From the NCBI GenBank assembly GCA_903923395.1, contig CAIXXM010000067.1:1-64000 (forward strand): a stretch of 64,000 bases of DNA, written 5' to 3'. Position 1 is the stretch's first letter. Each line of letters starts with the position of its first letter. This stretch comes from an uncultured Acidobacteriia bacterium (GTDB taxonomy: Bacteria; Acidobacteriota; Terriglobia; Bryobacterales; Bryobacteraceae). The notes beneath the pieces are model-generated. The model was given only the letters and a program-made list of their open reading frames with translations, was not told the origin of the DNA and did not search any database. This document shows positions 2,983 through 42,959 of this stretch, one piece after another. The translations under genes were made by a program, and so were the position numbers.

Positions 2983-3016
2983 GGAAGAATCCCTCTGCTG
3001 GTTAGAACACGCGGGG

Positions 3017-5355: not shown

Positions 5356-5371
5356 TCATTTCTGAGGAACC

Positions 5372-5399: not shown

Positions 5400-5446
5400 G
5401 GAACGCTGTGGTTACTGATCGATGTTGCGGGCGCGGCCCTCGCGCC

Positions 5447-5474: not shown

Positions 5475-5504
5475 TACGCTGCGGTTGATCGGGATTGCCT
5501 GCGG

Positions 5505-5954: not shown

Positions 5955-5958
5955 ATGT

Positions 5959-6972: not shown

Positions 6973-7032
6973 ACAATACCCAGTCTTAGGTTAAGCATGA
7001 GCTTATCCGCGGCATCTTCAGCTAGGATTGGA

Positions 7033-22621: not shown

Positions 22622-22989
22622 CGGATGACGACCAGCAGGATTCCAATGACACCTGCAGTGGTGGCTCCGATGATGGTTTGTACTGTGGCTGGCTCTAGGT
22701 AAAAGCCCCACAAGCGGAACCCTTGCAGGCCTACAAGGCCGATGATCGTGATGAGCCAAATGGCGACTAGTGCGAAAATCCGGTCCGAGTACGTCTTGCG
22801 CTGATCGGTGTCTTGGCGGTAGCTCTCGATATGGGCCATTTGTTGCTCGCGTTCCAAGTCGAGATATTCGTCTTCGAAGCCAGAATCCGGCTGACCGCTG
22901 ATCGGCCCCAGCGATTTTCTCTTCGCAAGGGCGAGTTCTTTGAACCTCTGTCGATTGACCAGTGGCTCGTTAGCCTGCCCGTCAGGCAG
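22600..22989 (-). CDS. small two-helix membrane protein, candidate PanT-type toxin
   Basis: The frame encodes about 129 residues if it starts at CTG 22989. That codon lies 7 bases after a perfect AAGGAG and overlaps the stop of the Panacea gene. Alternative starts are TTG at 22857 (85 residues) and ATG at 22839. The N-terminal half is charged (RFKELALAKRKS, LEREQQMAHIESYRQDTDQR). Two helices follow, FALVAIWLITIIGLVGLQGF and TIIGATTAGVIGILLVVIRYLF, ending in RR. Known Panacea systems encode varied toxins beside the antitoxin, including small membrane proteins, so a toxin role is inferred from position and topology. It overlaps the 3' end of the S41 gene by 22 bp on the opposite strand. Confidence 0.6.
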   Translation of the reverse strand: MPDGQANEPLVNRQRFKELALAKRKSLGPISGQPDSGFEDEYLDLEREQQMAHIESYRQDTDQRKTYSDRIFALVAIWLITIIGLVGLQGFRLWGFYLEPATVQTIIGATTAGVIGILLVVIRYLFPRR

Positions 22990-23482
22990 CGAACCACTCC
23001 TTTAGGCGGTCCTGGGGGATATTAATGCCTTTCCTGCCAGGATTTTGTTCCACGGTAACTGACCATGGCGTTCCCGGCCTGTGGGTGAGGTTGGAAAGTT
23101 GGACGGCCGAAAGATCACCGAACGACTCCCAGACGGCATCCAGCAAGTCCCTGGTTTCTTGATTCTCCTGGGCATTCGGGTAGCTATCGATGGATGGAGT
23201 AATGAAGCGGTACTTCAACCCATCCTCGAAGTGAACCACACGGGCCTTCTCCTTGATCCCGCCGCTGCCGTATTTCTTGAACTCGTGATAGATCGACGGG
23301 ATCACGGGACCATACGTCCAGGCTTGGATTTCTTCATCGATCAACGGACGGTTCAGTGCGGCCAGGCAGAAGCCGTGAGCGTTGTACACCAGCTTCTGCA
23401 GCTTCATCGGATTCAGGGTTTCGCCATCCATGGCCGCCCTGTCGATGAGGTAGTTGGCTATGGCTCTTGCATCGTATGCCAT
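22982..23482 (-). CDS. Panacea-domain protein (SocA/DUF4065), PanA-like antitoxin
   Basis: The 166-residue protein opens MAYDARAIANYLIDRA and has the family hallmarks NPMKLQKLVYNAHGFCLA and IQAWTYGPVIPSIYHEFKKYG. It closes with QLSNLTHRPGTPW. SocA and phage GepA-like proteins share this domain. It is known as a promiscuous antitoxin domain that neutralises unrelated toxins encoded next to it, and SocA itself acts as a ClpXP adaptor. Length is standard. Its 3' end overlaps the start region of the small membrane gene by a few bases, so the two are coupled. A cotranscribed pair next to a mobile cassette fits a toxin-antitoxin locus. Confidence 0.88.
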   Translation of the reverse strand: MAYDARAIANYLIDRAAMDGETLNPMKLQKLVYNAHGFCLAALNRPLIDEEIQAWTYGPVIPSIYHEFKKYGSGGIKEKARVVHFEDGLKYRFITPSIDSYPNAQENQETRDLLDAVWESFGDLSAVQLSNLTHRPGTPWSVTVEQNPGRKGINIPQDRLKEWFAA

Positions 23483-23533: not shown

Positions 23534-23851
23534 TCACTCCTTCGGCATCGACTCTGCCGCCAGAATCTCCACCGCATTCCCCGCAGGGTCATCCACATAG
23601 CAGCTGCGTGTCCCATCCCGGTGCAGTTTCAACTCGCCGTACTTTTCTGCTTCCGGACTCACAAACCCGATATGCGCCGGGTGCTGGCTGGGAATCACCA
23701 GCGCCAGCCGGATGTTGGCGAAGCCCAGCAGTGCCCAGGTGTCGTCCTGATACTTGATCTCACACTGGAACGTGGCGCGGTACCAATCCACCGCGGTCTT
23801 AATGTCAGTGACGGGGATGGCGACGTGGTCAATCGAATCGAGGGGACTCAT
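23534..23851 (-). CDS. VOC-superfamily (glyoxalase-like) protein
   Basis: The 105-residue protein starts SPLDSIDHVAIPVTDIKTAVDWYRATF and ends SCYVDDPAGNAVEILA, the paired beta-alpha-beta-beta-beta pattern of the vicinal oxygen chelate fold. Possible metal ligands are His in DHVAI and Glu in VEILA. One such domain makes half of a dimer active site. Substrate unknown (lyase, dioxygenase or resistance-type members share the fold). It lies 23 bp downstream of the MBL-hydrolase gene on the same strand and may share its transcript. Confidence 0.85.
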   Translation of the reverse strand: MSPLDSIDHVAIPVTDIKTAVDWYRATFQCEIKYQDDTWALLGFANIRLALVIPSQHPAHIGFVSPEAEKYGELKLHRDGTRSCYVDDPAGNAVEILAAESMPKE

Positions 23852-23874: not shown

Positions 23875-24702
23875 CTATAGATCGATGGAACAGCCTTCAT
23901 AAGCGGCAATCGTGTTTTCCCAAACCCTCGACGCATCCCAGGCGATGTTGTACATCGTGTCGTCGTCGTGCTCTGGATCGTGATGGAACAGAACGAGTTG
24001 CTTCGCCCCGGCATCCTTCGCCACGCGCGTCGCGTTTTCCCAAGTGCTGTGTCCCCAGCCGCGGTGCGTCTCATACTCCGCTGGTGTGTACTGGGAATCG
24101 CAAATCAAAATGTCCGCACCGGCAGCGTAATCCCGGAGGGTCGCATCCAGGTTTTCGTTGCCGTGTTCGTAGTCCGTGGCATAGACGATAACGGCACCGT
24201 CCGCCTCAATCCGATACCCGGCCGCACCTTGCGGATGATGTAGCGGAAACGCGTGGATCTTCAAATTGCCCACCGTCACCACTTCGTTCTCTTCAATCTC
24301 ATTGAAGTCACGCTTGGAAGAGACCTGGCTGAAGCTCACCGGGAAGTACGGTTGCGCCATCTGGCCTTCCAGCGTCTCAATCAACGGCAAGGCCTTCTTG
24401 GAGGAATGGAACGCCACGCGGTTCTTGGGTCCGTAAAGCGGGGCGAAGAAGGGAATGCCCTGAATGTGATCCCAATGGAAGTGGGTGAGGAAGATCTTGA
24501 CGTCGATGGGCGCGCCGGCAGCTTCCTGCAGCAGTTGCTGGCCGAGGTTCCGGATCCCGCTGCCCGCATCAAAGATGACCGATTCGCCGGTGGACGTCCG
24601 AACTTCCACGCAGGACGTGTTGCCGCCGCATTTCAAATTCGAAATGACCGGCGTGGGCGTCGACCCGCGAACTCCCCAGAATTTGAGTTGGGCTCTCGGC
24701 AT
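23875..24702 (-). CDS. MBL-fold metallohydrolase, possible cyclic-nucleotide phosphodiesterase
   Basis: The 275-residue protein has the metallo-beta-lactamase metal site THFHWDHIQGIPF (HxHxDH). It also has later ligands in FPLHHPQGAAGYRI, VYATDYEH and LFHHDPEHDDD. It begins LKFWGVRGSTPTP and has NTSCVEVRTSTGESVIFDAGSGIRNLG, a pattern shared with PhnP/RNase Z-like and class II cAMP phosphodiesterase-like hydrolases. No signal peptide, so cytoplasmic. It starts 8 bp after the caspase gene with AGGA 6 bases upstream of the ATG, so it is the last core gene of the cyclase-caspase operon. The hydrolysed bond is not known; a role in degrading the cyclase product is inference from context. Confidence 0.88.
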   Translation of the reverse strand: MPRAQLKFWGVRGSTPTPVISNLKCGGNTSCVEVRTSTGESVIFDAGSGIRNLGQQLLQEAAGAPIDVKIFLTHFHWDHIQGIPFFAPLYGPKNRVAFHSSKKALPLIETLEGQMAQPYFPVSFSQVSSKRDFNEIEENEVVTVGNLKIHAFPLHHPQGAAGYRIEADGAVIVYATDYEHGNENLDATLRDYAAGADILICDSQYTPAEYETHRGWGHSTWENATRVAKDAGAKQLVLFHHDPEHDDDTMYNIAWDASRVWENTIAAYEGCSIDL

Positions 24703-24709
24703 TCGCTTC

Positions 24710-27499
24710 CTAGAACGAAATCTTCTTTCTCAGGCGGTTCTTGCCAGACTTTTCGATCTCCAACTCCATCGCTCTACTATACGCGTCCCGTGCTGCCTGG
24801 GTATTATTGCGCACTTTTTCCGCATCGCCGAGTTGTTCCCAGAGCTGTGCATTCTGGGCGTCCAGCTTGGTGCACTCACGAAGTTGCTCCACCGCGGCGT
24901 CCATCTGCTGGTTCTTTGCATACTGCCCGGCCAGTGCCACCCTGGCCGCTACATACTGCGGTTTCGCCTCCACGACCTTCACATATTCAGCGATGGAAGC
25001 CGCCGTCTCCCCGCGCTTGGCGTAGAACTCAGCCAGGCTCAACCGGGAAGGCAGATAATCCGGTTGTGTGGTGAGGTTCTGCTTCCAAAGGTCCGCAGCT
25101 TCTGCCTGCCGGTCTTTCGTTCCGGCCAGCAGCAGAGCGTAGTTGTGGCGCGCGGCGAGCAGATTCGGATTCTTGGCCAGCGCCTGTTTGTAGAGCTTCT
25201 CTGCTTCCGCCGTCTTGCTCTCGGCCGCCTTGAGTGAACCCATCGCATTCAACGGTTCCGCGGAATCCGGAGCCAGTTCAATGGCCTTCTTGTAGTTGGC
25301 TTCCGCTTCACGCCGCTGATTCAACCGCTGATACACCAGGCCCAGGTTGTAGGGCAGATAGGCGAACTGCGGCGTAATCTTCATCGCCTGTTGATAGGCG
25401 CGGATCGTGCCCTGGTAATCACCAGATTCCTGATATGCCAGTGCCAGATTATGCAGCGGGTAAGACCAGTTCGGAGCGCGGCGCACAGCATCGCGGAAGG
25501 CCGGAATCGCCTTGGTGAAATCGGCCTGCTCCAGGTACGCGATGCCAAGCGCGTTGTACCCGTAAGCCTCGCCCGGGTCAATCCGCACGGACTGTTCCAA
25601 CAAATCCTGCGCATTGGCATAGGTCTTGTCGAAGAGTTGCGCACGGCCTTTGAAGAAGGCATCCCGGCCTTGCAGATACAAAGACTCCGGGGTCAAACGC
25701 ATGGCGGCTTCCATGTACCGGGAGCCAAGGTCGAATTCGGATTTGCCCTGCGGGGCTTGATCTCCCGCCAGATACTTCAGCAGCACCTGTTGGGCCTGAT
25801 CTTCCAGAGCCACGCGCAGATAGTTCTCCTGCAGAAAGACCTGCTGCGGACTCAGTTCCCGGCGCAGCTTCTCAAGAATCGGGAAGGCCGACCCGGTTTC
25901 ATCCGGCAGCAAACGCTTCGCGCGGATCGCCGCCTGGAATTGATCCACATCAGCCTGCGCTTCAGACGACAGAGCTTGTGCGGCACTCTGCGCGGCGAGG
26001 AAGAGCGGGCCGCCATTGCGGGAGTCAAACATCACGGGAAAGTGAGCCAGTTCGATGCCCGGCTTGCTGAGATCGGCGAGCTTGGTCGCGTTTTCCATGT
26101 TGCCGAAATCGCGGGCGTGCTGTTTGTTGTCAGTCAGTTTGCGGACGGAATCCGTCACGTAATCGATGAGTTCCCCGGCGCTGACGAAGCGGTCATCGTC
26201 GCGGTCGGCATTGCCTTGCAGGCCTTTCAGGACGGAGTAAGTGAACGCACCATGACCGCCACCGAACTGCGGACCTTCAATGGAAACTTCCTTGGGGCGT
26301 GCTGCCATCAGGCCCAGAATTTCTCCCGTTGCTTCGCCAAGAGCGGCAACCGCATTCGACAGGCTGGCTGTCTTGAGGCTGCCAATAGTGGCAGCGCGGC
26401 AAACATCCGCCATCAGAACGACGCGGCCTACCTTGGACAACTCCTGTTCCACGAGGGTCTGAATTTCCGCCATGGGAACGGCGGTGGAGGAAAGGTCCTG
26501 CGGGTCACTGTCATTGGTGAGGATGTAGGCACCGCGGCTGTCGACCGTGCCATGCCCTGCGAGGAAGATGAAGACCGTATCCTTCTTGCCCGCGCGGTTC
26601 TTGAGGAAGGTTTGGAAGCCATTGCGGATCGCTGCAGTGGTGGCCATTTCATCCGTGAGCACCAACATCTGGTCCGCGGGAACACCGCCGCCGCGTCCAC
26701 TGGCGAGGTGCTTCGAGAAAGCCAGAGCATCGGAATGCGCGTAGTGCAGCCAAAGATCCTGTGGCAGTTTCTGGTATTTCGAGATACCCACGAGCAGAGC
26801 ATAAGTCTTCGCATCCGGCGCAATCTCGGCCGACTTCAATGCGGCTTGCACCGCGAGATCTTCTTCAAGCTCGAAGATGCGGCCGCGGACCCAGACGGCG
26901 TCGGCCCACTGGGCGGCTACTTTCCGGTACGCGGCGAGGGCGTTCGGTTCCAGCTTCTTTTTTTCGAAGAGAGCGGCTTTGGCCACCAGCGCGGAGGTAT
27001 CGTTCGGATCGGCATTGATCTGGGCCTGGATGGGGGCAAGCTCGGCGCGAACATCAGCGGGCAGTGCATCGTCCGCGATCACATCGCCTTCCGGCTTGGC
27101 GAGGCCGCGGGTCATGCTGACCCCGTAGTGCTGCTGGCTGGCGACGGCGACGCGGACCAATTGCGGCAGGAAGCAGGCGTTGACGGGCTTGGGCGGGGCG
27201 AGTTTGCCGGTCTTGAGCTTCAGGATTTTCGCATCGAGACTGACTTCACCGTTGGGATCCAAAGTCTGGGAGGTCTTGGACGGGCAGTAGAGAAAGCTCG
27301 CGGGCGCGGCACCGGAACGCAGCACGTCGCCGGAGAAGAGGATATCTCCCGATTTCGCGGCCAGCGGCGTTTCCGTATTCGCGCGCAACACTTTGCCGCC
27401 GCCGGGATTCAGCACCAGGCCGACGGGTTCTTCCTTGGGCTGCTCCGCGCAGAGGATTCCCGCAGCGGCAACGGCCAGCATGAAAACACGCAATTTCAA
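24710..27499 (-). CDS. secreted caspase-like (C14) peptidase with FecR-like N-domain and TPR repeats
   Basis: The 929-residue protein has a signal peptide (MKLRVFMLAVAAAGILCA). Residues ~25-115 resemble a FecR-like beta domain (GDILFSGDVLRSGAAPASFLYCP). Residues ~230-430 form a caspase-type domain with YALLVGISKYQ, catalytic His in FIFLAGHGTVDSRG and catalytic Cys in VVLMADVCRAA. Residues ~610-929 are a run of TPR units (for example LHNLALAYQESGDYQGTIRAYQQAMKITPQFAYLPYNLGLVYQ). Bacterial caspase homologues (metacaspase/orthocaspase-like) cleave proteins in signalling or death programmes. The start overlaps the cyclase stop by 4 bp, so coupling is strong. The export signal puts the protease outside the cytoplasm, apart from the cyclase product. 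Confidence 0.9.
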   Translation of the reverse strand: MKLRVFMLAVAAAGILCAEQPKEEPVGLVLNPGGGKVLRANTETPLAAKSGDILFSGDVLRSGAAPASFLYCPSKTSQTLDPNGEVSLDAKILKLKTGKLAPPKPVNACFLPQLVRVAVASQQHYGVSMTRGLAKPEGDVIADDALPADVRAELAPIQAQINADPNDTSALVAKAALFEKKKLEPNALAAYRKVAAQWADAVWVRGRIFELEEDLAVQAALKSAEIAPDAKTYALLVGISKYQKLPQDLWLHYAHSDALAFSKHLASGRGGGVPADQMLVLTDEMATTAAIRNGFQTFLKNRAGKKDTVFIFLAGHGTVDSRGAYILTNDSDPQDLSSTAVPMAEIQTLVEQELSKVGRVVLMADVCRAATIGSLKTASLSNAVAALGEATGEILGLMAARPKEVSIEGPQFGGGHGAFTYSVLKGLQGNADRDDDRFVSAGELIDYVTDSVRKLTDNKQHARDFGNMENATKLADLSKPGIELAHFPVMFDSRNGGPLFLAAQSAAQALSSEAQADVDQFQAAIRAKRLLPDETGSAFPILEKLRRELSPQQVFLQENYLRVALEDQAQQVLLKYLAGDQAPQGKSEFDLGSRYMEAAMRLTPESLYLQGRDAFFKGRAQLFDKTYANAQDLLEQSVRIDPGEAYGYNALGIAYLEQADFTKAIPAFRDAVRRAPNWSYPLHNLALAYQESGDYQGTIRAYQQAMKITPQFAYLPYNLGLVYQRLNQRREAEANYKKAIELAPDSAEPLNAMGSLKAAESKTAEAEKLYKQALAKNPNLLAARHNYALLLAGTKDRQAEAADLWKQNLTTQPDYLPSRLSLAEFYAKRGETAASIAEYVKVVEAKPQYVAARVALAGQYAKNQQMDAAVEQLRECTKLDAQNAQLWEQLGDAEKVRNNTQAARDAYSRAMELEIEKSGKNRLRKKISF

Positions 27500-29361
27500 T
27501 TCACTACCTCTTCCAAATTGGACGGCTGCACCTTGACTTCGACCAGAGACCGGACGGTATAGAGCTTCATTGGCACCGTTTTTCCCCGCACAGGCACTTC
27601 GCCCAAGTAGTGTGTGTCAATCGCGCCGCCAATCATTTCACGTGTCTCTTCACTGAGCAGCAATTTCGTCTTGTTTTCTTTGTTCAGACTCTCCAGACGG
27701 GAGGCAAGGTTCACGGTATCGCCCAGAACGGTGAATTCCATCTTGTCTTCACTGCCAACGTTGCCGATGACGACCTCCCCGGAATGGAGGCCGGCACCGG
27801 TCTTGAATTCGCCCACCGGGATACTGACCATTTCCGCGGCGCACTCTGTGGCGCGGCGCGCGTGATCGCCCGGTGCGGCTTGCTCATCGTCATCAGAGAA
27901 TACCGCCAAAATGCCATCGCCAATGAACTTGTTGACGTGACCGTGATAGCGGACAATGATGCCGACCATCTCTTTCATATAGACATTGAGCAGGTCGACG
28001 ACGACGGCGGGGTCTTTGGATTCGCAGAAGGCCGTGAAGCCGCGGATGTCCGTGAAGAGAATGGTCACCTTTTGACGCTTGCCGGTGAGGCCGATCTTTT
28101 GGGTCTGTTCGAGTGACGTGGCCACCTGCTTGCCGACGAAGAGGGCGACCGCAGAACGGAAGAAGCTGCTCTTCCGCTCCGCCGTGGCGATGCGGTAGAC
28201 GATGGCCCCGAAGAGCGCCGCTGAGTAATCGATCAGAATCTCTGAAGTGGAAAGCAGCCAACCTGTGCGAAACAGGACGTGTGTCGCAGCGACGACCACG
28301 GCAAACAGTATGCCGGACCAGATCACGGACGGGGTGACTCCCAACAGCGCGACAATCCCGACGCAGGCGATTGCCGTGAGCAGCAATGCTGCAAATCGAA
28401 CCCAATCGGGAACTGGCTGCAGATAGGAACCGTCGAGCAGCGTCTGCAGCGTATTCGCGTGGATCTCCACCCCGGGCGTCTGCCATTCATTGCCGGCGAA
28501 GAACGTAAAGAACGGGGTGGAGTAACGGTCGGTCTTGTTGTCCGGACCCAGCAGAACCGCCTTGCCTTTGACCCATTTCTCCAGTTGGGCCTTGTTCCCG
28601 GCGCGGTAGGCGTTGATGAAATCCACCATGGAGATGCGGGGGAAGGTTCCGGCCGGTCCGGCGAAGTTGATGGTGAGGTCGTTTTCGGCACCAAGCGGGA
28701 CCTTCTTCCCTTGGAAATACAGCCCGCCGCCTTTGAACTGCGCTTCCTGATTGAGGAAGCGTTCGGCGGTCCGAAGCGCCATGCCGCGGGTGAGATTTTC
28801 TGCCGGCGCTCCCTTATCGGGGAGTTCAATCAATTCCTGGCGGCGGATGAAGTCGTCCTGATCTGTGGTCAGATTCGCGAAGGCATTCATGCCCATCGCG
28901 GCGGCCAGCATGTTCAGCGGCACGGCGAAGAGCGTTGTTTTCTCCTGTTCCGTTGTGCCGGGGACAAAGGCACAGACCACGGGCATGGTCTGGTTGGCTT
29001 CCGTGACGGCACCGGCGAGCAGGGAATCATTCTCCGGTTCCCAGCGTGTGACAGGAATCTGGAAGGTGACATCGAGCGTGAGCACCTTCGCGCCGCCCAA
29101 AGCCGCACCCCGGATCGCGTCTGCGTAATAAGGATGCCAGAACGAATAGAGTTCGGGGAAGCTGTTCAGGGTCTTTTGGTCGATGCCGATGAGTACGATG
29201 TCGTGCGTTGGTTGCTTGCCACGCAAAACGAAGTGGGCGTCCCGGGCTTTCAGGTGCAGCAACTGGACGAAGCGCAGGTTGTCGAGGCTGAGCGTGAGCA
29301 GCGTGCTGCCGAGCGCGAGAGCGCTGCAAATGGCCGTCTTTTTCCAATTCCGCGCGAGCAT
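27496..29361 (-). CDS. CHASE2-domain class III adenylate cyclase
   Basis: The 621-residue protein has an N-terminal helix and a CHASE2 extracytoplasmic sensor (residues ~30-320; DIVLIGIDQKTLNSFPELYSF, GAKVLTLDVTFQ, AVLLGPDNKTDRY). About three membrane helices follow at ~330-400, then a class III cyclase domain at ~430-600. Metal-binding Asp residues are in TILFTDIRGFTAF and NKFIGDGILAVF. The Lys of NKF and Asp of LGDTVNLASRLE are the adenine-specifying pair, and the Asn and Arg of that last motif are the transition-state residues, so it should be an active ATP cyclase. CHASE2-cyclases respond to unknown external cues. It is the first gene of an operon with the caspase and MBL proteins. Confidence 0.94.
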   Translation of the reverse strand: MLARNWKKTAICSALALGSTLLTLSLDNLRFVQLLHLKARDAHFVLRGKQPTHDIVLIGIDQKTLNSFPELYSFWHPYYADAIRGAALGGAKVLTLDVTFQIPVTRWEPENDSLLAGAVTEANQTMPVVCAFVPGTTEQEKTTLFAVPLNMLAAAMGMNAFANLTTDQDDFIRRQELIELPDKGAPAENLTRGMALRTAERFLNQEAQFKGGGLYFQGKKVPLGAENDLTINFAGPAGTFPRISMVDFINAYRAGNKAQLEKWVKGKAVLLGPDNKTDRYSTPFFTFFAGNEWQTPGVEIHANTLQTLLDGSYLQPVPDWVRFAALLLTAIACVGIVALLGVTPSVIWSGILFAVVVAATHVLFRTGWLLSTSEILIDYSAALFGAIVYRIATAERKSSFFRSAVALFVGKQVATSLEQTQKIGLTGKRQKVTILFTDIRGFTAFCESKDPAVVVDLLNVYMKEMVGIIVRYHGHVNKFIGDGILAVFSDDDEQAAPGDHARRATECAAEMVSIPVGEFKTGAGLHSGEVVIGNVGSEDKMEFTVLGDTVNLASRLESLNKENKTKLLLSEETREMIGGAIDTHYLGEVPVRGKTVPMKLYTVRSLVEVKVQPSNLEEVVN

Positions 29362-29817: not shown

Positions 29818-32800
29818 ATGCTGCAGCAGCTTCGAATTCCGCTCCTCCTTTTGCTCGCTGGCGTAAGTCTGCGGGCGCAGACCACCCAGGGCCTGATCTC
29901 CGGGCGGATTCTCAATTCCGTCACTGGACGGCCTGTCGCGGGTGCGGTCATCACTTATTCCACGGCAACTCTGGTGGCTTCCGGGAAGTTCCAGAGCGAT
30001 GCGGCAGGGTATTACTTTCTGCCACTGCTCTCCGCGGGACTCTACAACATCCGGGTGGCGGCTCAGACGTATCAGGCCGCAGAAGTGCAGCGGATTGAAC
30101 TGCCTGTGGCCGGACGCATTCAGCTGGATGTGAAGTTGCGTCCACTGAATGATGTTTGGGAAACCGGCCAATTCCGCAGTGTCTTCCTGCCGGGCACCAA
30201 AACCATAGTGACGTTTTACGGGCCGGACGTGGATTCAAGCCGGTCGGGCTCCTTTGAAGCGCTGCGCGGGCAGAAGGGCACGCTCGATACTTCGGCGTCC
30301 TATGTCATCGATAGTGGCCAGTTGGATTCTCTGCCCATCGCGGGCCGGGATGTTTACACGAACCTTGTCAGTCTGCCGAATGTCACTGCCGACGGCGGAA
30401 CTTCCCGCGGGCTGGGTCTGAGCGTGGCCGGGCAGAGGCCTTCGGCTTCGAACTACCTGCTCGATGGCGTGGAGAACAACAACTACCTGGTGACAGGGCC
30501 GCTCAGTCCGGTGGCTCCGGAGGCGGTGCAGGAATATCGCATTTCGACGAATAACTACTCCGCGGAATACGGCCGGACGAGCGGCTTCATCGCCAATGCC
30601 GTGACGCGCGCGGGTTCGAAGGAATATCACGGGACGGCTTACGGCTATCTCAAGAACGATGGTTTCAACGCGGCAAACTTTGCCGATAACGCCGCCAGCT
30701 TGGGCCGTCGCCCGGTCAAGGAGTACCAGTTCGGGTATCAGGCCGGTGGCCCGGTGACTCCGAAGGGCGATCTGCGGAACCGGTTGTTCTTCTCGAGTGC
30801 CTTCGATCAACTGGTCAGCCACAGTGCTTTGGATCCGCAGACCTACGCGGTGCCGGCGACCAACTTTGTTTCGGCGTTCAATCTGCCCACCACACGTCTG
30901 GCCCGCCAGTTGCTGGAACAATATCCGGCTCCGGCGGTACAGTCGAATGACCTTGTCGCTGGCTACACGGCGGCGCAACCCGTTGTCGTGGACCGGGCCA
31001 CCTTATTAGAGCGTGGCGATTACACCACCCGCGACGGCAGCAACCGCTTTCTGGCGCGTCTGGCAGTGAACAAGCTCACTGAGCCCGATTTCATCTGGAG
31101 CCCTTACAAGGACTTCACCTCTGGCCTGCATCAAGACACCTATGCCGGTGCCGCGAATTGGATGCGAACCTGGACGCCCCGTCTCACCAGCGAATTGAAG
31201 TTCAGCTACTCGGACGACACACTCTACTGGGACCGCGCGCATCCTGAGGTACCCACCCTTTCGTCAGGCGATGGCACCGTGCTGCCGGGGAGCCCCGCTT
31301 TTTATGCGTATCGCAATCACAACCGCATTGCCGAGACCATATTCAGCACGGTTTGGACACAGAACCGCCACATCGTCTCCGCGGGTGCCGGGCTCTTGCT
31401 GCGGAATAATGACGGCTATCTCACCGCCGGACGCGACGGCGAGTACATATTCTCCGGCGTGACGGCTTTCGCGTTTGACCGCCCGCAATACTTCCTTGCC
31501 ACGGTGGACCGGCTGGCATCCACCCCGGCGCAGCCGAACTTCAACCGCAGCTATTCGTATCCGGAGACCTATCTTTTCGCGCAGGATAGCTGGCGCCTGA
31601 CCAACCGTCTCACTTTGAACCTCGGCATACGCTATGAGTTGTACGGCACCCCCACCAACACCGGTTCCGCGAAAGACGCGCTGCTGGCCCTTGGCTCCGG
31701 CACAAACTTCACTTCCAGGCTCGCTTCTGCCACACTCGTCCGTCCGGCGGCTGGCGACCAATCCTTATATAACGCCGACCATGGCGACTGGGCTGGGCGG
31801 TTCGGTTTTTCATGGGACCCGAACGGGAGCGGCAAGACAGTGCTCCGTGGTGGTTACGGCATGTTCTATGACCGTCCCTTCGATAATCTCTGGCAGAATC
31901 TGCGGAATAACGGGATCGCTCTGCCGCTCTACAGCGTGACAGCCAGCAGCACCAACTACCTTGCGCCCGTTTCGCAGGCGCTGTCGCTCTATGCGAAACA
32001 ATCGCAAAGCTCCAGCTTTCCTTCGCTCACACTGGTCGACCCGAATCTCAAGAATGGCTACGCGCAGAGCTTCTTTCTCGGCGTGCAGCGGCAACTCACC
32101 GGGAGCTTGTCGGTCGAAATCACCGGGACCGGTTCGCTGGGCAGGCGTCTGATTACGACAGATCTCGTGAACCGGCAGTTCACAACGACTAACGGCACGG
32201 GGCGTCCCAATGAATCTCTGCCGGATGTTGGGTACCGCTCCAGTCAAGGCAGTTCGGACTACTTCGCGCTGAGCACCCGGGTGCGTTACCAGTGGCGTAC
32301 GGTCACTGTACAGGGAGTCTATACATGGAGTCACTCCCTGGATAATCAGAGCGATCCCCTGACTGGCGATTTCTTCGATCTGAATTTCACGACCATCAGT
32401 TCCGGCAGTGGAAATACACTGCGCTCCGCCTTCACGCAGCAGTACAACAGTTCGGGGGACCGGGCGAACTCGGACTTTGACCAAAGACACAACCTGTTCC
32501 TCTGGGGGACGTGGGAGTCACCCTGGCGCAGGATCTGGTCGAAGGGCTGGCAACTCTCCGGGTTGGCGGCCTTCCGCAGCGGCTTTCCCTACAGTGTGGA
32601 GAGTATCGTCACCAGTGCGCCGCAGTTCGGAGCGGGGCAGATCCAGAACCAGAGAGCGGATCTGGTGAGTGCGAGCGCGTTCTACAGCAAGCCCATCCCG
32701 GCTGCTGGAGGACAGTACGTCTTGAACCCGGCGGCGTTCGCTTTCCCCGCCAGTGACAGTATTCCGGGCACTTCCGGGCGGAATGCCTTCCGTGGACCGG

Positions 32801-33060
32801 GTTTGTACAGCATGGATCTCGCGGTGAGCCGCAGCTTTTCTCTCGCCCGTTGGCGCGAGGGAATGTCCTGGTCACTGCGGGCGGACGCGTTCAACCTTCT
32901 CAATCACGCGAACTTGAACAATCCGGATAATCTTTTTGGTTCGGCCACTTTTGGATTGGAAACCTACGGCCGGCAGGGCAAAGCCTCTGGTTTTCCAGCA
33001 GTTGCGCCGCTGAATGAGACGGCAAGACAGGTCCAAATCTCATTTCGGGTTCACTTTTAA
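29818..33060 (+). CDS. Oar-like TonB-dependent receptor with carboxypeptidase-regulatory N-domain
   Basis: The 1080-residue protein has a signal peptide (MLQQLRIPLLLLLAGVSLRAQ). A carboxypeptidase-regulatory-like domain follows (GLISGRILNSVTGRPVAGAVITYST...AGYYFLPLLSAGLYNIRV). The plug domain has DSLPIAGRDVYTNLVSLPNVT and SNYLLDGVENNNYLV. A long barrel follows with NRLTLNLGIRYELYGTPTN and WDPNGSGKTVLRGGYGMFYDR, ending QVQISFRVHF, an aromatic C-terminal barrel signal. Members sit in the outer membrane and import or bind large ligands; Oar-type proteins are abundant in Acidobacteria. The start at 29818 is chosen for the signal peptide and the upstream GGGACGGG. Ligand unknown. It stands alone upstream of the PEP-CTERM gene (100-bp gap). 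Confidence 0.93.
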   Translation: MLQQLRIPLLLLLAGVSLRAQTTQGLISGRILNSVTGRPVAGAVITYSTATLVASGKFQSDAAGYYFLPLLSAGLYNIRVAAQTYQAAEVQRIELPVAGRIQLDVKLRPLNDVWETGQFRSVFLPGTKTIVTFYGPDVDSSRSGSFEALRGQKGTLDTSASYVIDSGQLDSLPIAGRDVYTNLVSLPNVTADGGTSRGLGLSVAGQRPSASNYLLDGVENNNYLVTGPLSPVAPEAVQEYRISTNNYSAEYGRTSGFIANAVTRAGSKEYHGTAYGYLKNDGFNAANFADNAASLGRRPVKEYQFGYQAGGPVTPKGDLRNRLFFSSAFDQLVSHSALDPQTYAVPATNFVSAFNLPTTRLARQLLEQYPAPAVQSNDLVAGYTAAQPVVVDRATLLERGDYTTRDGSNRFLARLAVNKLTEPDFIWSPYKDFTSGLHQDTYAGAANWMRTWTPRLTSELKFSYSDDTLYWDRAHPEVPTLSSGDGTVLPGSPAFYAYRNHNRIAETIFSTVWTQNRHIVSAGAGLLLRNNDGYLTAGRDGEYIFSGVTAFAFDRPQYFLATVDRLASTPAQPNFNRSYSYPETYLFAQDSWRLTNRLTLNLGIRYELYGTPTNTGSAKDALLALGSGTNFTSRLASATLVRPAAGDQSLYNADHGDWAGRFGFSWDPNGSGKTVLRGGYGMFYDRPFDNLWQNLRNNGIALPLYSVTASSTNYLAPVSQALSLYAKQSQSSSFPSLTLVDPNLKNGYAQSFFLGVQRQLTGSLSVEITGTGSLGRRLITTDLVNRQFTTTNGTGRPNESLPDVGYRSSQGSSDYFALSTRVRYQWRTVTVQGVYTWSHSLDNQSDPLTGDFFDLNFTTISSGSGNTLRSAFTQQYNSSGDRANSDFDQRHNLFLWGTWESPWRRIWSKGWQLSGLAAFRSGFPYSVESIVTSAPQFGAGQIQNQRADLVSASAFYSKPIPAAGGQYVLNPAAFAFPASDSIPGTSGRNAFRGPGLYSMDLAVSRSFSLARWREGMSWSLRADAFNLLNHANLNNPDNLFGSATFGLETYGRQGKASGFPAVAPLNETARQVQISFRVHF

Positions 33061-33160: not shown

Positions 33161-34099
33161 ATGTTGCGTTTGCATACTACAATTCGCGTTTGTTTTCTGC
33201 TCGCAGCCCTCCAGGGTCTGGCGCATGCCGATTCGTTTAGCTGGGTAGACCCCGGCACCAAGATTGCCGGTGCCAGTTCGGGTGACCTCACTCCAGTGAA
33301 TCTGGGAATCAGCTTCCAGCTCTTTGGGAACACGTACACTTCAGCTACTGTGTCCGCGCAAGGCTACCTCGCCTTCACCGGCAATCAGACGCCTTCAGAA
33401 TTGAGCGTTCTGGAGACTGCTGAGGCCACCGATGCGAACATGGCCCACAGCGATGTGGTTCGTATTGCACCGGGTTGGTGGAACACGGAAGTTATTGACC
33501 AAAACCCAACAGACGCAGCAGCGGGAATCTTTCTGAACACCGGTACGGTGGGTCAGACGGTCATCACCTGGGTCAACATGGGTTACTACATTCCCCCGTC
33601 GCTTGCGTCGGGTGCTGTCTACCCTGCGCCCGATGAACTGTCCACATTCCAAGTTGTTCTTCGCTCGGATGGTTCGGTGACCTTCAACTACAAAGAGCTG
33701 AACGTTCTAAATCCGGCCAACGGGCATGACAACTCCCTCGACAGTTCTCCGCAGTTGATCATGGGCATCGGCAACAACGACGGCAGTACTCCGTACAGCT
33801 CCGCGAACCTCACGGCGGCCGCCCTCGGTCAGGCCACCTTCACCACTTGTGAGTTTTCCAACTGTGAGTCAACGGTGTATCAAACCATCGCCAATCCGAT
33901 CTACGCGGGGGGCAACGGGGTCCAGCTTCAAAGCCAGACCATCACGTTTAACCAGATTGGTCAAAACGGCTGGTACGTCTCGAGCGGTGGAGTACAGCCG
34001 ACCTCAGACGTCTCTGCCCCTGAGCCCGCAACATTCGAATTATTGCTCGCTTTTGTCTCCGTGGGTGTAATTTTCCGCCGCAAACTGACACACTGTTAG
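33161..34099 (+). CDS. PEP-CTERM sorting-signal surface protein, nidogen-like beta domain
   Basis: The 312-residue protein has a signal peptide (LHTTIRVCFLLAALQGLAHA). The beta-rich body includes VNLGISFQLFGNTYTSATVSAQGYLAFTG and FQVVLRSDGSVTFNYKEL, similar to nidogen-type extracellular domains. The C terminus is a PEP-CTERM signal: APEPATFELLLAFVSVGVIF followed by RRKLTHC. Such proteins are processed by exosortase EpsH/XrtA-type enzymes and displayed or released with exopolysaccharide. No exosortase is in the window. It ends 4 bp before the giant Ig-repeat gene, so both are probably cotranscribed. Confidence 0.9.
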   Translation: MLRLHTTIRVCFLLAALQGLAHADSFSWVDPGTKIAGASSGDLTPVNLGISFQLFGNTYTSATVSAQGYLAFTGNQTPSELSVLETAEATDANMAHSDVVRIAPGWWNTEVIDQNPTDAAAGIFLNTGTVGQTVITWVNMGYYIPPSLASGAVYPAPDELSTFQVVLRSDGSVTFNYKELNVLNPANGHDNSLDSSPQLIMGIGNNDGSTPYSSANLTAAALGQATFTTCEFSNCESTVYQTIANPIYAGGNGVQLQSQTITFNQIGQNGWYVSSGGVQPTSDVSAPEPATFELLLAFVSVGVIFRRKLTHC

Positions 34100-34103: not shown

Positions 34104-37100
34104 GTGAACCGTAAAATACAGATCCTTAGTCTGCTGGCGGGATTACTCGCCGCAGCCCCCGCGTTTGCAGACCTTCGGCTCATTCCCAGCTACATGCAGG
34201 GAACCGTCGGTAGTAACGTAGGCAATATTCTCATTCAAGCCTTCCCGGCGGCTTCAGGTACCTATGTTTTCTCGGCGGACCTGAGTGGCTACGGCTTGGT
34301 CATGTCTTCCGCTGGCGTCATCACGGGAACGCCCACCGTCCCGACGAATGGCCTGGTGACCGTGCCTGTGTCGATTACCGATACCGGCAACACAAGTGGT
34401 GCGCCGCAAACCGTCAATCTGGGAGTCATCATTTCCCCGTTGCCGCTCGCGATTACGACTTCTTCGCTGCCCTCGGGTATTTCGGGCAAAGGGTTCACGT
34501 CCGCAGTCTCGATGGCTGCCACGGGCGGCTTTCAACCATACACGTGGAGCGTGGTGCTTGGGTCGCTCAACGGACTCTCACTGGGGAGCAATGGGACCTT
34601 CAGCGGCACTTTCAACGCTGTTTCCTCCGCGACGACTGTTTCCGCCACCATTCAGGTCTCTGATTCGGTTTCCACCGTTTACCGCCAAGCCTACAATTTC
34701 ACCCTCTATCCACTGCTCCAAATCACCGCGCCGTCGTCTCTTGGTTTTGCGGTTGCGGGGAAGCCAGTTGCGCCCATCACGGCAGTAGCCACCGGTTCTA
34801 CGGGAACCCCCTCCTGGTCGGCGACAGGGTTGCCGAATGGGATCAGCATCAGTTCCTCAACGGGTGTGATCAGTGGCACCCCGCTCTCTGCGTCGCTTTC
34901 CAACACCGCCACGATTACCGTGACCGATCCGGTCTCCGGGCAAACGGCGTCAACGCAGCTTTCCCTGCCGGTCTACCCTGTACTCACGCTGAATGGTCCC
35001 GCGAGCTTTGGTCCTGCGGTGATTAACAAGCCCTTCGGTCCCGTGCAGGTTGCCGCGACTGGCGGTTCGGGCAGCTTTACGTACTCAGCTACGGGTCTGC
35101 CGTCTGGTCTTACTATCAGCCCCACGACTGGCATCATCAATGGCACTCCCGTTGGTTCGGCAGGTTCCTCTCAAGTCACACTCACCGTGACCGATGCCAC
35201 TTCAAACCAGTCCGTCAGTTCGGCACAGCTTCCCTTGCAGGTCTACCCGGCACTGCAGATGAATTCTCCAAGTTCGCTGCCTGCTTCCGTGGTCAATAAG
35301 GCTTATTCGGTCACTTCATTCAGCGCGACCGGTGGTTCCGGCAGTTATACGTGGTCCGCCACAGGCTTGCCCAGCGGCATTGTCATCAGTTCGACTACCG
35401 GTGCCATCGCCGGAACGCCGCTAGCGGCCAGCACGGGTTCGGTCACCGTGACGGTCGCTGATTCCACGTCCGGCCAGACAGTGTCTTCGTCCCCGCTGAC
35501 ACTGACGGTTTACCCGACGCTCACCATACAGAGTCCGACAAGCTTTGGTCCCGCGGTTCTGGGACAGAGTTTCGGTCCAGTGCAGGTTGTGGCGACGGGC
35601 GGCTCGGGAACTTACAGCTATTCCGCCACGGGTCTTCCGTTCGGCGTTTCGATAGGCAGTTCCACCGGGTCCATCAGCGGAACCCCCGGCAGCACAGCAG
35701 GCCCCTCATCGGTCACCATCACGGTCTCGGACCCCACTTCCGGACAGACCGTCACTACCCCGATCATTATTTTGCGGGTCTACACCGCTTTGAATCTGAG
35801 TGCACCGGCTTCTCTGCCGCCAGCTGTGCAGAACCAAACCTATTCGGTAACTTCGTTCGGCTCCACGGGCGGATCTGGGACCTATGCGTGGTCGGCCACT
35901 GGTCTTCCGTCGGGATTGTCGATAAACCCCGCGACCGGTGCTATCACTGGCACTCCCACCGCTACTGGCAGTTCCGCGATTGTAGTCACGGTGCAGGATT
36001 CCACCTCCGGCCAAAGCGCCTCTTCCGTATCGCTGCCCTTGACCGTCTATTCCGTTGTCACGATTACGGCCCCTGCCAGTTTCGGACCCGCCGTGCTTGG
36101 CCAGTCCTTTGGACCTGTTTCGGTTCTAGCGACGGGTGGCTCTGGAACGTACACTTACTCCGCCACCGGCCTTCCCCAGGGGCTTTCGATCAATTCGAGC
36201 GGAGTGATCAGCGGGACGCCGAATGGCTCCGCGGGCACCAGCACAGTGGCGGTCACGGTGAACGATCCCACTTCTGGCCAAACGGTCAACAAATCCAACC
36301 TGTCCCTCACGGTCTACACCCAAATCTCACTGTCGGGTCCAGCGGTTCTGCCGTTCGGTATCATCGGGCGCACGTACTCCGGCACCAGCTTGACTGCGGG
36401 TGGCGGCTCGGGAACCTATAGCTGGTCCCTGACCGGATCCACTTATGGACTGAGCATCAACAGCTCCGGCCAGGTTAGCGGGACGGTGAGCGGATCTGCC
36501 GGTGCAACCACCCTCACGGTAGCGCTGCAGGACGCGACTTCCGGGCAGTCCACCAGCAAGGCCTTCCCGATTACGCTTTATACGTACCCGTCGATTACCG
36601 GGCCGTCTTCTCTCCCGGTCGGGATCACAGGGAAGTCCTACCAGGGAGCTGTTGCTTCCGCCTCGGGTGGGAGCGGAGTTTACGTTTGGGGTCAGACCGG
36701 CTTGCCCGCAGGCCTTTCCATCAGCAATGGCGGTCTCATTTCCGGTAATGTGACCGCCTCACCCGGAAGCTATCCGGTGACGATCACACTCACTGACTCC
36801 ACCCTGTCTGTGAGCGCCACCCGCAACCTTACCGCGCAGGTCTATTCACCGGTTTCCATCACAGGGCCATCGTCTCTCCCAGCGGGCACCTACGGTGCCA
36901 CGTATTCGGTCACGATCCAGGCTGCGGGTGGATCTGGCTTCTACACTTGGGCGGCCTCCGGCTTGCCCGGGATGAGCATTTCGAGTGCCGGTGTCATCAG
37001 CGGAACGCCGAATGCGGGCGGAACCTTCCCGGTCAGTGTCACGGTGGCTGACGAAATTTCCGGGCAGAGCTCCACGCAAAATTACACGTTGACTGTCGGG

Positions 37101-40628: not shown

Positions 40629-42959
40629 ATGATCGGGACCACCATTTCGCGTTATGACATCCTCGAAAAGCTTGGGGAAGGCGGGATGGGTGTTGTCTAT
40701 AAGGCCAAGGACCAGCAGCTGGGGCGCTTCGTCGCCGTCAAGGTTCTGCTTGCTCCTCCCGGCGAGAATTCCGAAAAACGGGCACGCTTTATTCAGGAGG
40801 CCCGCGCGGCTTCCGCACTGAATCACCCCAATATCATCACGGTTTATGAAATTGTGCCGATGCCGAATGGCGAGTGTATTGCCATGGAATTCGTGCGCGG
40901 CGTCAACCTGCAGGATCAAATTGCGGGCCGCAAGCTCACCCAGATGGACGCCCTCAAGACGGCCATGCAGGTTGCCGATGCTCTCTATGCGGCGCATAAC
41001 ATCGGGATCGTCCACCGGGATTTGAAACCCGCGAACGTCATGGTGACGCCGGAGGGTCTGGCCAAGGTGCTGGATTTCGGTCTTGCCAAACTGGCGGGGG
41101 ATAGTGGCCTTGTCGATCTGAGCCAGTCCGACCGCACGCAGTCGATCCAACTGGATGCACGCCCCAAGACAGCCGAGGGTGCGATCATCGGCACCGTTGC
41201 CTACATGTCGCCGGAGCAGGCCCAGGGCAAGCCGGTGGACTGGCGCAGCGATATCTTCTCGTTCGGCTCTCTGCTGTATGAGCTTTTCACCGGGGAGAAG
41301 GCTTTCCACGGCGATTCCGGACTATCCACGCTGGCCGCAGTGCTGCGGGATCATCCCAAGGACTTTTCGACTCTGGGTATTCACGCTCTGGAAGTGCAGG
41401 ACATCGTCCGCCGTTGCATGAAGAAAGACCCGGACCAGCGGTATCAATCCATGCTGGACGTGAAGAACGATCTGGAAGCGGTGTACTACGCCAACCGCTC
41501 CGGCATCATGCAGATGGCTTCCGGCATATTCAAAGCGGCAGTCCAGAAAGCGACGCCTTCCATTGCCGTGCTTCCGTTTCTGAACATGAGCTCAGACAAG
41601 GAAAACGAATACTTCAGCGACGGGCTGGCCGAGGAAATCATCAACGCCCTCACGCGTCTGGAGAACCTGCGCGTGGCTGCCCGCACTTCGGCGTTTGCGT
41701 TCCGCGGCACGCAGGATGATGTCCGCAAGATCGGCGAGACGTTGAATGTGGCCAGTGTGCTGGAAGGCAGCGTCAGAAAATCAGGCAACCGTGTCCGGAT
41801 CAGTGTCCAGTTGATCAGCGTGGCGGATGGCAACAATCTCTGGTCCGAGCGGTTTGACCGCGAAATGACAGACGTGTTTGAGATTCAGGATGAGATCTCC
41901 GCCGCCATTGTGGGAACGTTGAAGGTCCGGTTTGCCAGCCAGTCGGGTTCCGGCACAGAACCCCCGAAGGGCCAGGTGCCGCTGGTCAAGCGTTATACCG
42001 AAAACCTGGATGCATACAACCTGTACCTGAAGGGCCGCTTCGAGTTGTACAAGATGACCCGCGAAGGGCTGGATGCTTCGAAGCACCTCTTCGAGCAGGC
42101 CATTGCGCTGGATCCGAATTACGCGCTGGCGCATGATGGGCTGGCTTACTGCTGGTATTCCGAGGGCTTTCTGGGTTTTGTGGCGCCGAAAGAGGCCATG
42201 CCCAAAGCCAAGCAGGCTGTGCGCAAGGCAATTGAACTGGATGAATCCGTGGCGGAAGCGCACGCGACGCTCGGTGTTATCCATGCGCTCTATGACTGGG
42301 ATTGGGTGGGTGCCGAGCGCGAAATGATGCGGTCGATTGAACTCAATGGTTCTTCGCCTGTGTCCCGTGATGTCTACGCCTTCTACTTCCTGCGCCCCGT
42401 GGGCCGGATTGACGAAGCGATTGCAGAAACCCAGAACGCGCTCTCGCTGGACCCCCTTTCGATTCTCTTCCGCGTGCATCTGGGCTTCCTGTTTTACCTG
42501 CAGCAAAACTATGACCGGGCCATCGCGCAGTTCCGCAAAGTGCTGGAGATGAATCCGAACTACTATCTGGCCTACGCCATGATGGGACCGTCTTACACCC
42601 AGACCTGCCGGTTCGATGAAGCACTGGAAGCCTACTCGAAAGCCCGTGCTGCCGATGCGGACAGCAAGTTCGTTGCTTCACTCGAAGCCACAACCCTCGC
42701 AGTGGCAGGACGCAGGCAGGAAGCTCTCGCGATGCTGGCGCAGATCAACAATCGCGCGGCTGCGGAATACATCTCTCCGGTCAGCATTGCGTACATCTAT
42801 ACCGCCCTCGGCGACCGCGACACGGCATTTGATTACCTGGACCGCGCAATACAGGACCGTGATCCCAATATTCTGGGTTTGAAGTCGAATCCCGTCTTCG
42901 ATGGCCTGCGCAATGAAGAGCGCTACCGGGCTTTGTTGCGGAAAATGCAATTGGAATAA
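40629..42959 (+). CDS. Ser/Thr protein kinase fused to TolB-like and TPR modules
   Basis: The 776-residue protein has a Hanks-type kinase at residues ~7-280: GEGGMGVVYKA glycine loop, VAVKVL lysine, HRDLKPANVMV catalytic loop, DFGLAKL and YMSPEQAQGKPVDWRSDIFSFG. Residues ~310-450 match the TolB-like N-domain seen in adenylate-cyclase-like regulators (PSIAVLPFLNMSSDKENEYFSDGLAEEIINALTRL, VASVLEGSVRKSGNRVRISVQL). TPR repeats fill ~470-776. No membrane helix is evident between kinase and TolB modules, unlike PknB-type sensors, so the enzyme looks cytoplasmic. It lies 31 bp upstream of lolA and the pilus-like operon and could regulate that machine by phosphorylation (inference). Confidence 0.93.
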   Translation: MIGTTISRYDILEKLGEGGMGVVYKAKDQQLGRFVAVKVLLAPPGENSEKRARFIQEARAASALNHPNIITVYEIVPMPNGECIAMEFVRGVNLQDQIAGRKLTQMDALKTAMQVADALYAAHNIGIVHRDLKPANVMVTPEGLAKVLDFGLAKLAGDSGLVDLSQSDRTQSIQLDARPKTAEGAIIGTVAYMSPEQAQGKPVDWRSDIFSFGSLLYELFTGEKAFHGDSGLSTLAAVLRDHPKDFSTLGIHALEVQDIVRRCMKKDPDQRYQSMLDVKNDLEAVYYANRSGIMQMASGIFKAAVQKATPSIAVLPFLNMSSDKENEYFSDGLAEEIINALTRLENLRVAARTSAFAFRGTQDDVRKIGETLNVASVLEGSVRKSGNRVRISVQLISVADGNNLWSERFDREMTDVFEIQDEISAAIVGTLKVRFASQSGSGTEPPKGQVPLVKRYTENLDAYNLYLKGRFELYKMTREGLDASKHLFEQAIALDPNYALAHDGLAYCWYSEGFLGFVAPKEAMPKAKQAVRKAIELDESVAEAHATLGVIHALYDWDWVGAEREMMRSIELNGSSPVSRDVYAFYFLRPVGRIDEAIAETQNALSLDPLSILFRVHLGFLFYLQQNYDRAIAQFRKVLEMNPNYYLAYAMMGPSYTQTCRFDEALEAYSKARAADADSKFVASLEATTLAVAGRRQEALAMLAQINNRAAAEYISPVSIAYIYTALGDRDTAFDYLDRAIQDRDPNILGLKSNPVFDGLRNEERYRALLRKMQLE

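What the first reader, a model, noticed from the sequence alone, without database searches (positions are those of the whole stretch)
23875..29361. Operon of CHASE2-adenylate cyclase, secreted FecR/caspase/TPR protein and MBL hydrolase
The three genes overlap by 4 bp or are 8 bp apart, so they form one unit. They combine a sensor-cyclase with all catalytic residues, a caspase-type protease with His and Cys, and an HxHxDH hydrolase resembling class II cyclic-nucleotide phosphodiesterases. Synthesis, output and removal of a signal could therefore be encoded together. The caspase carries an export signal, which puts it on the other side of the membrane from cAMP. The sensor therefore probably regulates expression or localisation, or CHASE2 reads caspase products. 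CHASE2-FecR co-occurrence is known from other bacteria; this full set I have not seen described.
Basis: partly seen in the sequence, partly recalled or inferred. Interest (0 to 1): 0.72.

Follow-up and report, generated by a model that had tools for sequence, protein, structure and literature searches.

The report
Membrane cyclase, exported caspase, signal-hydrolase operon
Three neighbouring genes in an uncultured Acidobacteriota bacterium appear to form an envelope-sensing cyclic-AMP circuit: a membrane sensor that makes the signal, an exported caspase-like protease that probably feeds the sensor, and an enzyme that probably destroys the signal.

Summary
The genes are real, tightly packed and fixed in the genus: caspase and MBL lie -1 to 7 bp apart in 18 of 19 genomes; all three share a contig in 14 of 19. 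The host is of the Bryobacterales (Acidobacteriota). The strict trio is limited to this genus; elsewhere in the family MBL sits apart.

MBL is linked to CHASE2-cyclases beyond the genus. In four other Acidobacteriota genomes the operon reads M48 protease, CHASE2-cyclase, MBL, cNMP-binding channel. A cyclic-nucleotide phosphodiesterase is the best reading, unproven. The caspase is exported with its His/Cys pair conserved. Its "FecR" domain is only FecR-like.

An Oar-type outer-membrane barrel lies within 1.3 kb of the cyclase or abuts a caspase in 12 of 19 genus genomes. And 27 of 39 CHASE2-cyclase loci from a phylum-wide sample carry an adjacent M48 protease (16) or FecR protein (11).

CHASE2-cyclase/PDE/FecR/TPR clusters are published for Campylobacterota, so this is a caspase-bearing variant of a known kind.

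The parts
27496..29361 (-). CHASE2-class III adenylate cyclase, 621 aa: CHASE2 sensor, membrane segments, cyclase domain
   Evidence: Pfam CHASE2 2.1e-31 and Guanylate_cyc 1.4e-22; catalytic residues conserved; K540/T544 as an adenylate-type pair is recalled; hydrophobic segments at 324-342 and 352-370
24710..27499 (-). Exported FecR-like / caspase (C14) / TPR protein, 929 aa; His316 and Cys367
   Evidence: Pfam Peptidase_C14 1.1e-10 and TPRs; dyad conserved in 32 of 34; signal-peptide-like N-terminus; FecR-like by hhalign, probability 94.3, 45 columns
23875..24702 (-). MBL-fold metallohydrolase, 275 aa, no export signal seen; probable cyclic-nucleotide phosphodiesterase
29818..33060 (+). Oar-type TonB-dependent outer-membrane protein (CarboxypepD_reg + Plug + OMP_b-brl_4), divergent from the cyclase; the listed ORF starts at 29722, likely start 29818
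   Evidence: Pfam on the ORF from 29722; close homologue beside caspase or cyclase genes in 20 genomes
23534..23851 (-). VOC/glyoxalase-fold protein, 105 aa, 23 bp after MBL; optional fourth gene
   Evidence: Pfam Glyoxalase 9e-7; within 30 bp of MBL in 5 of 18 genus loci
40629..42959 (+). Ser/Thr kinase with TPR tail that often follows the TonB-dependent gene in the genus; membership in the system uncertain
   Evidence: Pfam Pkinase 3e-46; next to the same TonB-dependent gene in L095, L103, L173, L176, L178, L187

Best explanation
This is an envelope-to-cytoplasm cAMP signalling module. The periplasmic FecR-like/caspase/TPR protein sits next to the CHASE2 sensor and controls it, most likely by cutting or holding a periplasmic or outer-membrane partner. 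[quoted passage not shown] The cytosolic MBL enzyme hydrolyses cAMP and resets the signal. The Oar-type outer-membrane barrel encoded beside it is the likely outer end of the chain. Shown by sequence: the genes, their conserved order in the genus, intact catalytic residues, and an export-signal-like N-terminus on the caspase. Inferred from gene context: MBL as phosphodiesterase, caspase as input partner. Guessed by analogy: the outer-membrane barrel as receptor.
For: Operon fixed in the genus. In other Acidobacteriota the order CHASE2-cyclase, MBL, cNMP-binding protein recurs with gaps of -4 to 20 bp in G170, G209, G260, G268; the last gene is an MscS channel by Pfam in three of them and was found by the cNMP model alone in G170. 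MBL within 2 kb of a cyclase or cNMP-binding gene in 11 of 74 non-trio loci, including Afipia, other Alphaproteobacteria and Chloroflexi. MBL and CHASE2 co-occur (27 of 36 MBL genomes against 35 of 163 others) and lie within about 8 kb in 9 of 26 genomes with both besides the window's own. Adjacent M48 protease (16) or FecR protein (11) at 39 CHASE2-cyclase loci. Published precedents: Campylobacterota cluster; S. meliloti CHASE2 cyclases activated through outer-membrane barrel NsrA.
Against: No enzyme activity is shown for any of the three. MBL is as close to RNase Z as to PDEs by sequence and fold and far below the cut-off of the cyclic-nucleotide PDE model (73.9 against 400 bits). 63 of 74 non-trio MBL loci show no cyclase or cNMP gene within 2 kb. 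In G044, G051 and G052 the cyclase-caspase pair has no MBL beside it. Cyclase without caspase next door: G033 (FecR-like only) and G056; FecR-like caspases without a cyclase: G038, G049, G061 and second copies in G004, G044, G051. 12 of 39 CHASE2-cyclase loci have neither M48 nor FecR by my models, and MBL is beside none of the last 20. G004 has Ala for the caspase Cys. In S. meliloti a FecR and a TPR protein under Clr control were not needed for perception. A narrow model finds no cNMP receptor in the window.
Confidence: 0.5

Rival explanations
1. The caspase is an effector that is only co-expressed: a secreted or periplasmic protease whose genes are coupled to a cAMP sensor for regulation, possibly exported through the Oar-type barrel as PopC is in Myxococcus. 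It neither senses nor touches CHASE2.
For: The Oar-type barrel gene follows stand-alone exported caspase genes at -1 to 10 bp in G003, G007, G015, G016, loci without a cyclase. Oar is required for PopC protease secretion (PMC6434023 passages).
Against: Overlap of 4 or 8 bp with the cyclase gene in most genus genomes, the FecR-like and TPR parts, and M48 or FecR genes in the same place in other clades (27 of 39 loci) point to a partner of the sensor.
Confidence: 0.25
2. MBL is not a phosphodiesterase of cAMP but a nuclease or other hydrolase regulated by second messengers; it is an output of the module.
Against: Between its two RNase Z matches it has about 45 residues fewer than RNase Z (that this stretch is the tRNA-binding arm is recalled). 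It sits beside cyclases and cNMP-binding proteins; similar structures also include YhfI, Apyc1 and yeast PDE1.
Confidence: 0.22
3. An anti-phage cyclic-nucleotide system (Pycsar-like cyclase with a caspase effector).
For: PADLOC Pycsar cyclase models hit the cyclase (best 3e-25) and a caspase model hits the protease (1e-18).
Against: Those cyclase matches cover the general class III domain. The caspase has an export signal, away from the nucleotide. The operon is conserved at a fixed order in the genus, unlike patchy defence genes; neighbours include type II secretion and LolA genes. A phosphodiesterase fits poorly with abortive defence.
Confidence: 0.03

Closest known systems
Campylobacterota CHASE2-adenylate cyclase cluster (PMC9239204; section 9 read, other parts by passages)
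   Same: CHASE2 cyclase together with a phosphodiesterase, a FecR-domain protein and a TPR protein
   Different: No caspase mentioned in the section; FecR and TPR are separate proteins there; the kind of PDE is not given in the main text
Sinorhizobium meliloti CyaD1/CyaD2/CyaK with outer-membrane barrel NsrA (PMC13001267, PMC7529298; passages)
   Same: CHASE2 cyclases that answer an outside signal through an outer-membrane beta-barrel and raise cAMP
   Different: No caspase or MBL in the passages seen; relatedness of NsrA to the barrel here was not tested; the original NsrA paper is not held
Burkholderiales CHASE2-histidine kinase with LysM-FecR protein (PMC5192318; passages)
   Same: CHASE2 sensor gene beside an exported FecR-domain protein
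   Different: Output is a two-component system, not cAMP; no protease in the passages seen
Atypical class II PDEs Rv1339, YhfI, CpdA (PMC9293780; passages)
   Same: MBL fold, PF12706, [T/S]HxHxDH motif; YhfI 6kns is Foldseek rank 2
   Different: Distant: 17-19% identity to YhfI; far below the PDE model cut-off; activity untested
Oar of Myxococcus xanthus and PopC secretion (PMC6434023; passages)
   Same: TonB-dependent barrel with CarboxypepD_reg and plug, linked to an exported protease
   Different: [quoted passage not shown] here the protease is a caspase with one
Prokaryotic caspase homologues (PMC3501461; passages)
   Same: Caspases with TPR; Lactamase B among common enzymes of metacaspase operons; one caspase-CHASE2 fusion in Trichodesmium
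   Different: In that fusion the caspase domain is predicted cytoplasmic; the word FecR does not occur in the main text

Membership tests
CHASE2-type class III adenylate cyclase | CHASE2 domain before membrane segments and a class III catalytic domain with metal Asps, adenine K/T, transition-state N/R | tested here: met
   (names of the residue roles are recalled)
CHASE2-type class III adenylate cyclase | makes cAMP | not testable with these tools
   residue pair only; no assay
Caspase-like peptidase (C14) | C14 domain above cut-off with His/Cys dyad | tested here: met
   42.1 bits against 21.4; dyad in 32 of 34 ORFs
Caspase-like peptidase (C14) | catalytic fold and dyad geometry | tested here: inconclusive
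   AF2 model poor, pLDDT 63.9, residues 364-508 under 50
FecR domain (PF04773) | Pfam FecR match | tested here: not met
   no FecR match at E up to 1 in the window N-terminus or 8 homologues (for three TPR-rich ones only the best 25 families were shown); called FecR-like only, on a 45-column profile match at probability 94.3
Atypical class II PDE (Rv1339/YhfI/CpdA) | MBL fold with [T/S]HxHxDH motif | tested here: met
   THFHWDH
Atypical class II PDE (Rv1339/YhfI/CpdA) | score above the curated family model NF041851 | tested here: not met
   73.9 bits against 400; so not filed as a member, only as working like one
Ribonuclease Z | curated model score and the stretch between the two conserved halves | tested here: not met
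   93 bits against 293; 15 query residues face 60 chain residues between the two matches
Oar-type TonB-dependent transporter | CarboxypepD_reg plus Plug plus barrel, no STN | tested here: met
   E up to 0.01: four families, STN not among them; barrel by OMP_b-brl_4
Campylobacterota CHASE2-cyclase/PDE/FecR/TPR cluster | four functions encoded together | tested here: inconclusive
   cyclase and TPR present; FecR-like and PDE-like only by inference
Pycsar defence | nucleotide-activated cytosolic effector beside the cyclase | tested here: not met
   no cNMP-binding domain in the window by a narrow model; caspase with export signal

The most novel reading that the evidence does not exclude
CHASE2 cyclases of Acidobacteriota read envelope proteolysis. 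An exported protease (caspase here, M48 in other clades, FecR-TPR where no protease is beside it) is the partner of the CHASE2 domain, and in Bryobacterales an Oar-type outer-membrane barrel, the caspase and the cyclase form one outer-membrane-to-cAMP chain that the MBL enzyme resets. The window protein would join the two usual partner kinds, FecR-like and protease, in a single polypeptide.
Probability: 0.22. Interest if true: 0.82.

Novelty: new variant of a known kind. Interest (0 to 1): 0.6.

Why it matters
What CHASE2 domains sense is largely unknown (one paper read here says so for its own case, PMC5192318 passages). If exported proteases sit upstream of CHASE2-cyclases, the question becomes testable: delete or inactivate the protease and measure cAMP. 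It would also give bacterial caspases a periplasmic signalling role distinct from cell death, and give the widespread RNase Z-like MBL proteins of this group a function.

Tried and rejected
Rejected: Pycsar or other defence (caspase with export signal, genus-wide conservation, generic cyclase hits). Rejected: tRNA-processing RNase Z for the MBL protein (shorter middle part, low score). Rejected: Pfam-grade FecR domain. Corrected on the way: G042 looked like cyclase plus FecR-like without caspase, but contig C10 ends inside that ORF and contig C55 ends inside a caspase gene, so it is most likely one locus with the order of L208 cut by a contig end (an inference).

Led nowhere: AF2 of the caspase (9 sequences, pLDDT 63.9). 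VIA-align library not available. CRP-type site search gave 21 matches against 22.5 expected and none between 29362 and 29817. Of the proteins beside the CHASE2-cyclases that lack M48 and FecR, four were given to Pfam: two had no match, one FlgT_N, one DUF928.

Weakened by a wider sample: in the first 19 CHASE2-cyclase loci all 19 had M48 or FecR beside them. 12 of these came, picked by hand from the high-scoring part without sight of their neighbours; 7 came and had been chosen because MBL and CHASE2 lay near each other. The M48 and FecR models were built from members of that set. In 20 further cyclase loci (from 40 CHASE2 loci) only 8 had one (3 M48, 5 FecR); 12 had neither, 8 of them from one family and several on short contigs. 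MBL stood beside none of those 20. The rule is therefore a tendency, 27 of 39. Five CHASE2-cyclases of other orders of the class (L122-L125, L129) are not in that count: four have a FecR-like gene within 1 kb, one on the other strand; L125 ends at its contig edge.

The probabilities treat genomes as independent, which they are not. The tree needs 16 changes of the label 'MBL within 3.1 kb of a cyclase, CHASE2 or cNMP gene', at least 11 forced by well-supported branches; four genus rows count as unlinked only because of contig ends, and gain and loss cannot be told apart (FastTree only).
Full report
WHAT IS THERE. The three minus-strand genes are as described: cyclase 27496-29361, caspase/TPR 24710-27499, MBL 23875-24702. 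Domains are confirmed by Pfam. The cyclase has the class III catalytic residues with a K/T adenine pair, conserved in its homologues (residue roles recalled). The caspase has His316 and Cys367, conserved in 32 of 34 caspase-domain ORFs; one genus member (L097, genome G004) has Ala for Cys and one ORF is truncated. A signal-peptide-like stretch begins 29 of 33 caspase ORFs, stand-alone caspases of 270-310 aa included (hydrophobicity only, no SignalP here). The six fully conserved MBL metal ligands are invariant in 49 sequences from several phyla, and H240/H241 nearly so. The MBL protein has no export signal by the same measure.

THE HOST. The window lies in a 6.15-Mb assembly.

HOW FAR THE OPERON IS CONSERVED. 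In 19 genomes of the genus, caspase and MBL genes adjoin on one contig in 18 (window plus 17; gaps -1 to 3 bp, 7 in the window). The nineteenth, G004, has a contig that ends inside the caspase gene, and no MBL match better than 4e-5 in its assembly. Cyclase and caspase adjoin in 17 of 19; in G013 and G016 they are split by contig ends. All three share a contig in 14 of 19, or 15 if G017 is counted, where only the cyclase tail is on that contig. Outside the genus the cyclase still precedes the FecR-like/caspase/TPR gene in G041, G044, G051, G052 and L208, but MBL is elsewhere in G044, G051 and G052. There are exceptions both ways: the cyclase of G033 has a FecR-like gene without caspase and that of G056 neither next door, while G038, G049, G061 and second copies in G004, G044 and G051 are FecR-like caspases without a cyclase. 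In L208, and by inference in G042, MBL lies 1.6 kb from the caspase gene on the other strand, next to an NDH2-like oxidoreductase that carries a cNMP-binding domain. So the strict trio is a property of one genus.

In 199 Acidobacteriota genomes, 62 have CHASE2 and 36 have this MBL at E up to 1e-40; 27 have both. Read from those two tables, MBL lies within about 2 kb on the same strand in G170, G209, G214, G260 and G268, besides the window's own operon, and within about 8 kb in G131, G190, G217 and G235. In G170, G209, G260 and G268 the operon reads M48 protease, CHASE2-cyclase, MBL, cNMP-binding protein, with cyclase-MBL gaps of -4 to 9 bp. M48 is by Pfam in G170, G209 and G260 and by my model in G268; the last gene is an MscS channel by Pfam in G209, G260 and G268 and by the cNMP model in G170. 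An enzyme encoded between a cyclase and a cyclic-nucleotide receptor is most simply a cyclic-nucleotide phosphodiesterase. On a FastTree of 137 MBL sequences the linked label needs 16 changes, at least 11 forced by supported branches, against 28.3 in shuffles; the link has been made or lost repeatedly.

WHAT THE CASPASE PROTEIN MAY DO. I examined 39 CHASE2-cyclase loci from the phylum-wide sample. An M48 peptidase gene adjoins on the same strand in 16, a FecR (usually FecR-TPR) gene in 11, neither in 12, never both within 2 kb. The nine M48 N-termini that I looked at carry a lipobox-like or signal-peptide-like start (by eye). The first 19 loci were all positive but served to build the models, and 7 of them had been picked for MBL nearness; of the 20 fetched afterwards 8 were positive, and 8 of the 12 negatives belong to one family. 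In Bryobacterales the same place holds a single protein with a FecR-like N-terminus, a caspase and TPRs. Caspase genes with export-like starts also flank CHASE2 genes in two other genomes (L337 a cyclase; L340 a CHASE2 protein without cyclase). I read this as a partner or input role for the caspase, upstream of cAMP, and not as an output. The FecR-like label rests on one profile match and on weak DUF7354 matches in homologues, a model that also touches the FecR region of true FecR-TPR proteins.

THE OUTER-MEMBRANE GENE. A divergent gene at 29818-33060 encodes an Oar-type TonB-dependent barrel. Its best match lies within 1.3 kb of the cyclase in 8 of 19 genus genomes (the window among them; in three a small ORF may lie between), abuts a stand-alone caspase in 4, and is near neither in 7: G001, G004, G005, G006, G008, G011, G012. 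Outside the genus such genes lie beside caspase or cyclase genes in G038, G042, G044, G051, G052, G081 and L208, and a fragment at a contig end in G061; G004 has a second such pair. Not so in G030 and G063. It overlaps the caspase gene by 4 bp in G044 and G038. These genomes hold many paralogues of this barrel (187 first-look candidates in the window's genome, 12 scored), so the link is unlikely by chance (independence and a rough density assumed). Two published precedents point different ways: NsrA, an outer-membrane barrel through which S. meliloti CHASE2 cyclases are activated (passages of PMC13001267 and PMC7529298), and Oar, required for secretion of the protease PopC (passages of PMC6434023).

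COMPARISON WITH PRINT. The nearest published system is the Campylobacterota cluster of CHASE2-cyclase, phosphodiesterase, FecR protein and TPR protein (PMC9239204, section 9 read). Searches for CHASE2 with FecR and caspase and CHASE2 with M48 found 0 papers in the held open-licence library; CHASE2 with FecR found 3, of which I saw passages and, of PMC9239204, that section. Three further searches listed nothing nearer; I saw their listings only. Most subscription papers are not in that library. The rhizobial FecR and TPR proteins under Clr control are not needed for perception (passages of PMC5498481), which speaks against assuming an input role for every FecR or TPR partner.

VERDICT. A real operon, conserved in its genus; a caspase-bearing variant of the known CHASE2-cyclase/PDE/FecR/TPR arrangement. 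Phosphodiesterase for MBL is likely (about 0.75), caspase as input partner is plausible (about 0.55), the outer-membrane barrel as receptor is open.

Noticed in passing
L301:6200-7993 (genome G270): A protein with an N-terminal TIR domain and a CHASE2 domain (TIR_2 1e-14, CHASE2 1e-16): a CHASE2 sensor joined to a possible NADase or signalling domain.
   Followed up: no
L340 (genome G173) 580-12074: A CHASE2 gene without cyclase stands among three genes with caspase-model matches: one Pfam C14 protein and two long WD40 proteins in which Pfam's best 25 families were all propellers.
   Followed up: partly
L208:6347-7939 and L144:6973-8580: NDH2-type NADH dehydrogenase with a C-terminal cNMP-binding domain, adjoining MBL: a respiratory enzyme that may be gated by a cyclic nucleotide.
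   Followed up: no
L147, L152, L172, L226, weakly L138 (PilZ); L154, L155, L266 (receiver): Relatives of the MBL protein fused to PilZ or response-regulator receiver domains, suggesting regulated hydrolases.
   Followed up: partly
L097:3134-4960 (genome G004): Caspase of the operon with Ala in place of the catalytic Cys; the contig ends inside this gene.
   Followed up: partly
window 34104-40523 with 33161-34099: A 2139-aa protein with 13 putative Ig (He_PIG) stretches after a protein with sub-cut-off NIDO and PEP-CTERM matches; both follow the TonB-dependent gene in L174 and L175 too.
   Followed up: no
window 22982-23482: SocA/Panacea antitoxin-like protein, 392 bp from the MBL gene; no homologue found in the other genus loci fetched.
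   Followed up: no
L212: A metagenome record titled Bordetella parapertussis has the contig length of G042:C55 and carries Bryobacterales-type genes; the title looks like a mislabel.
   Followed up: no
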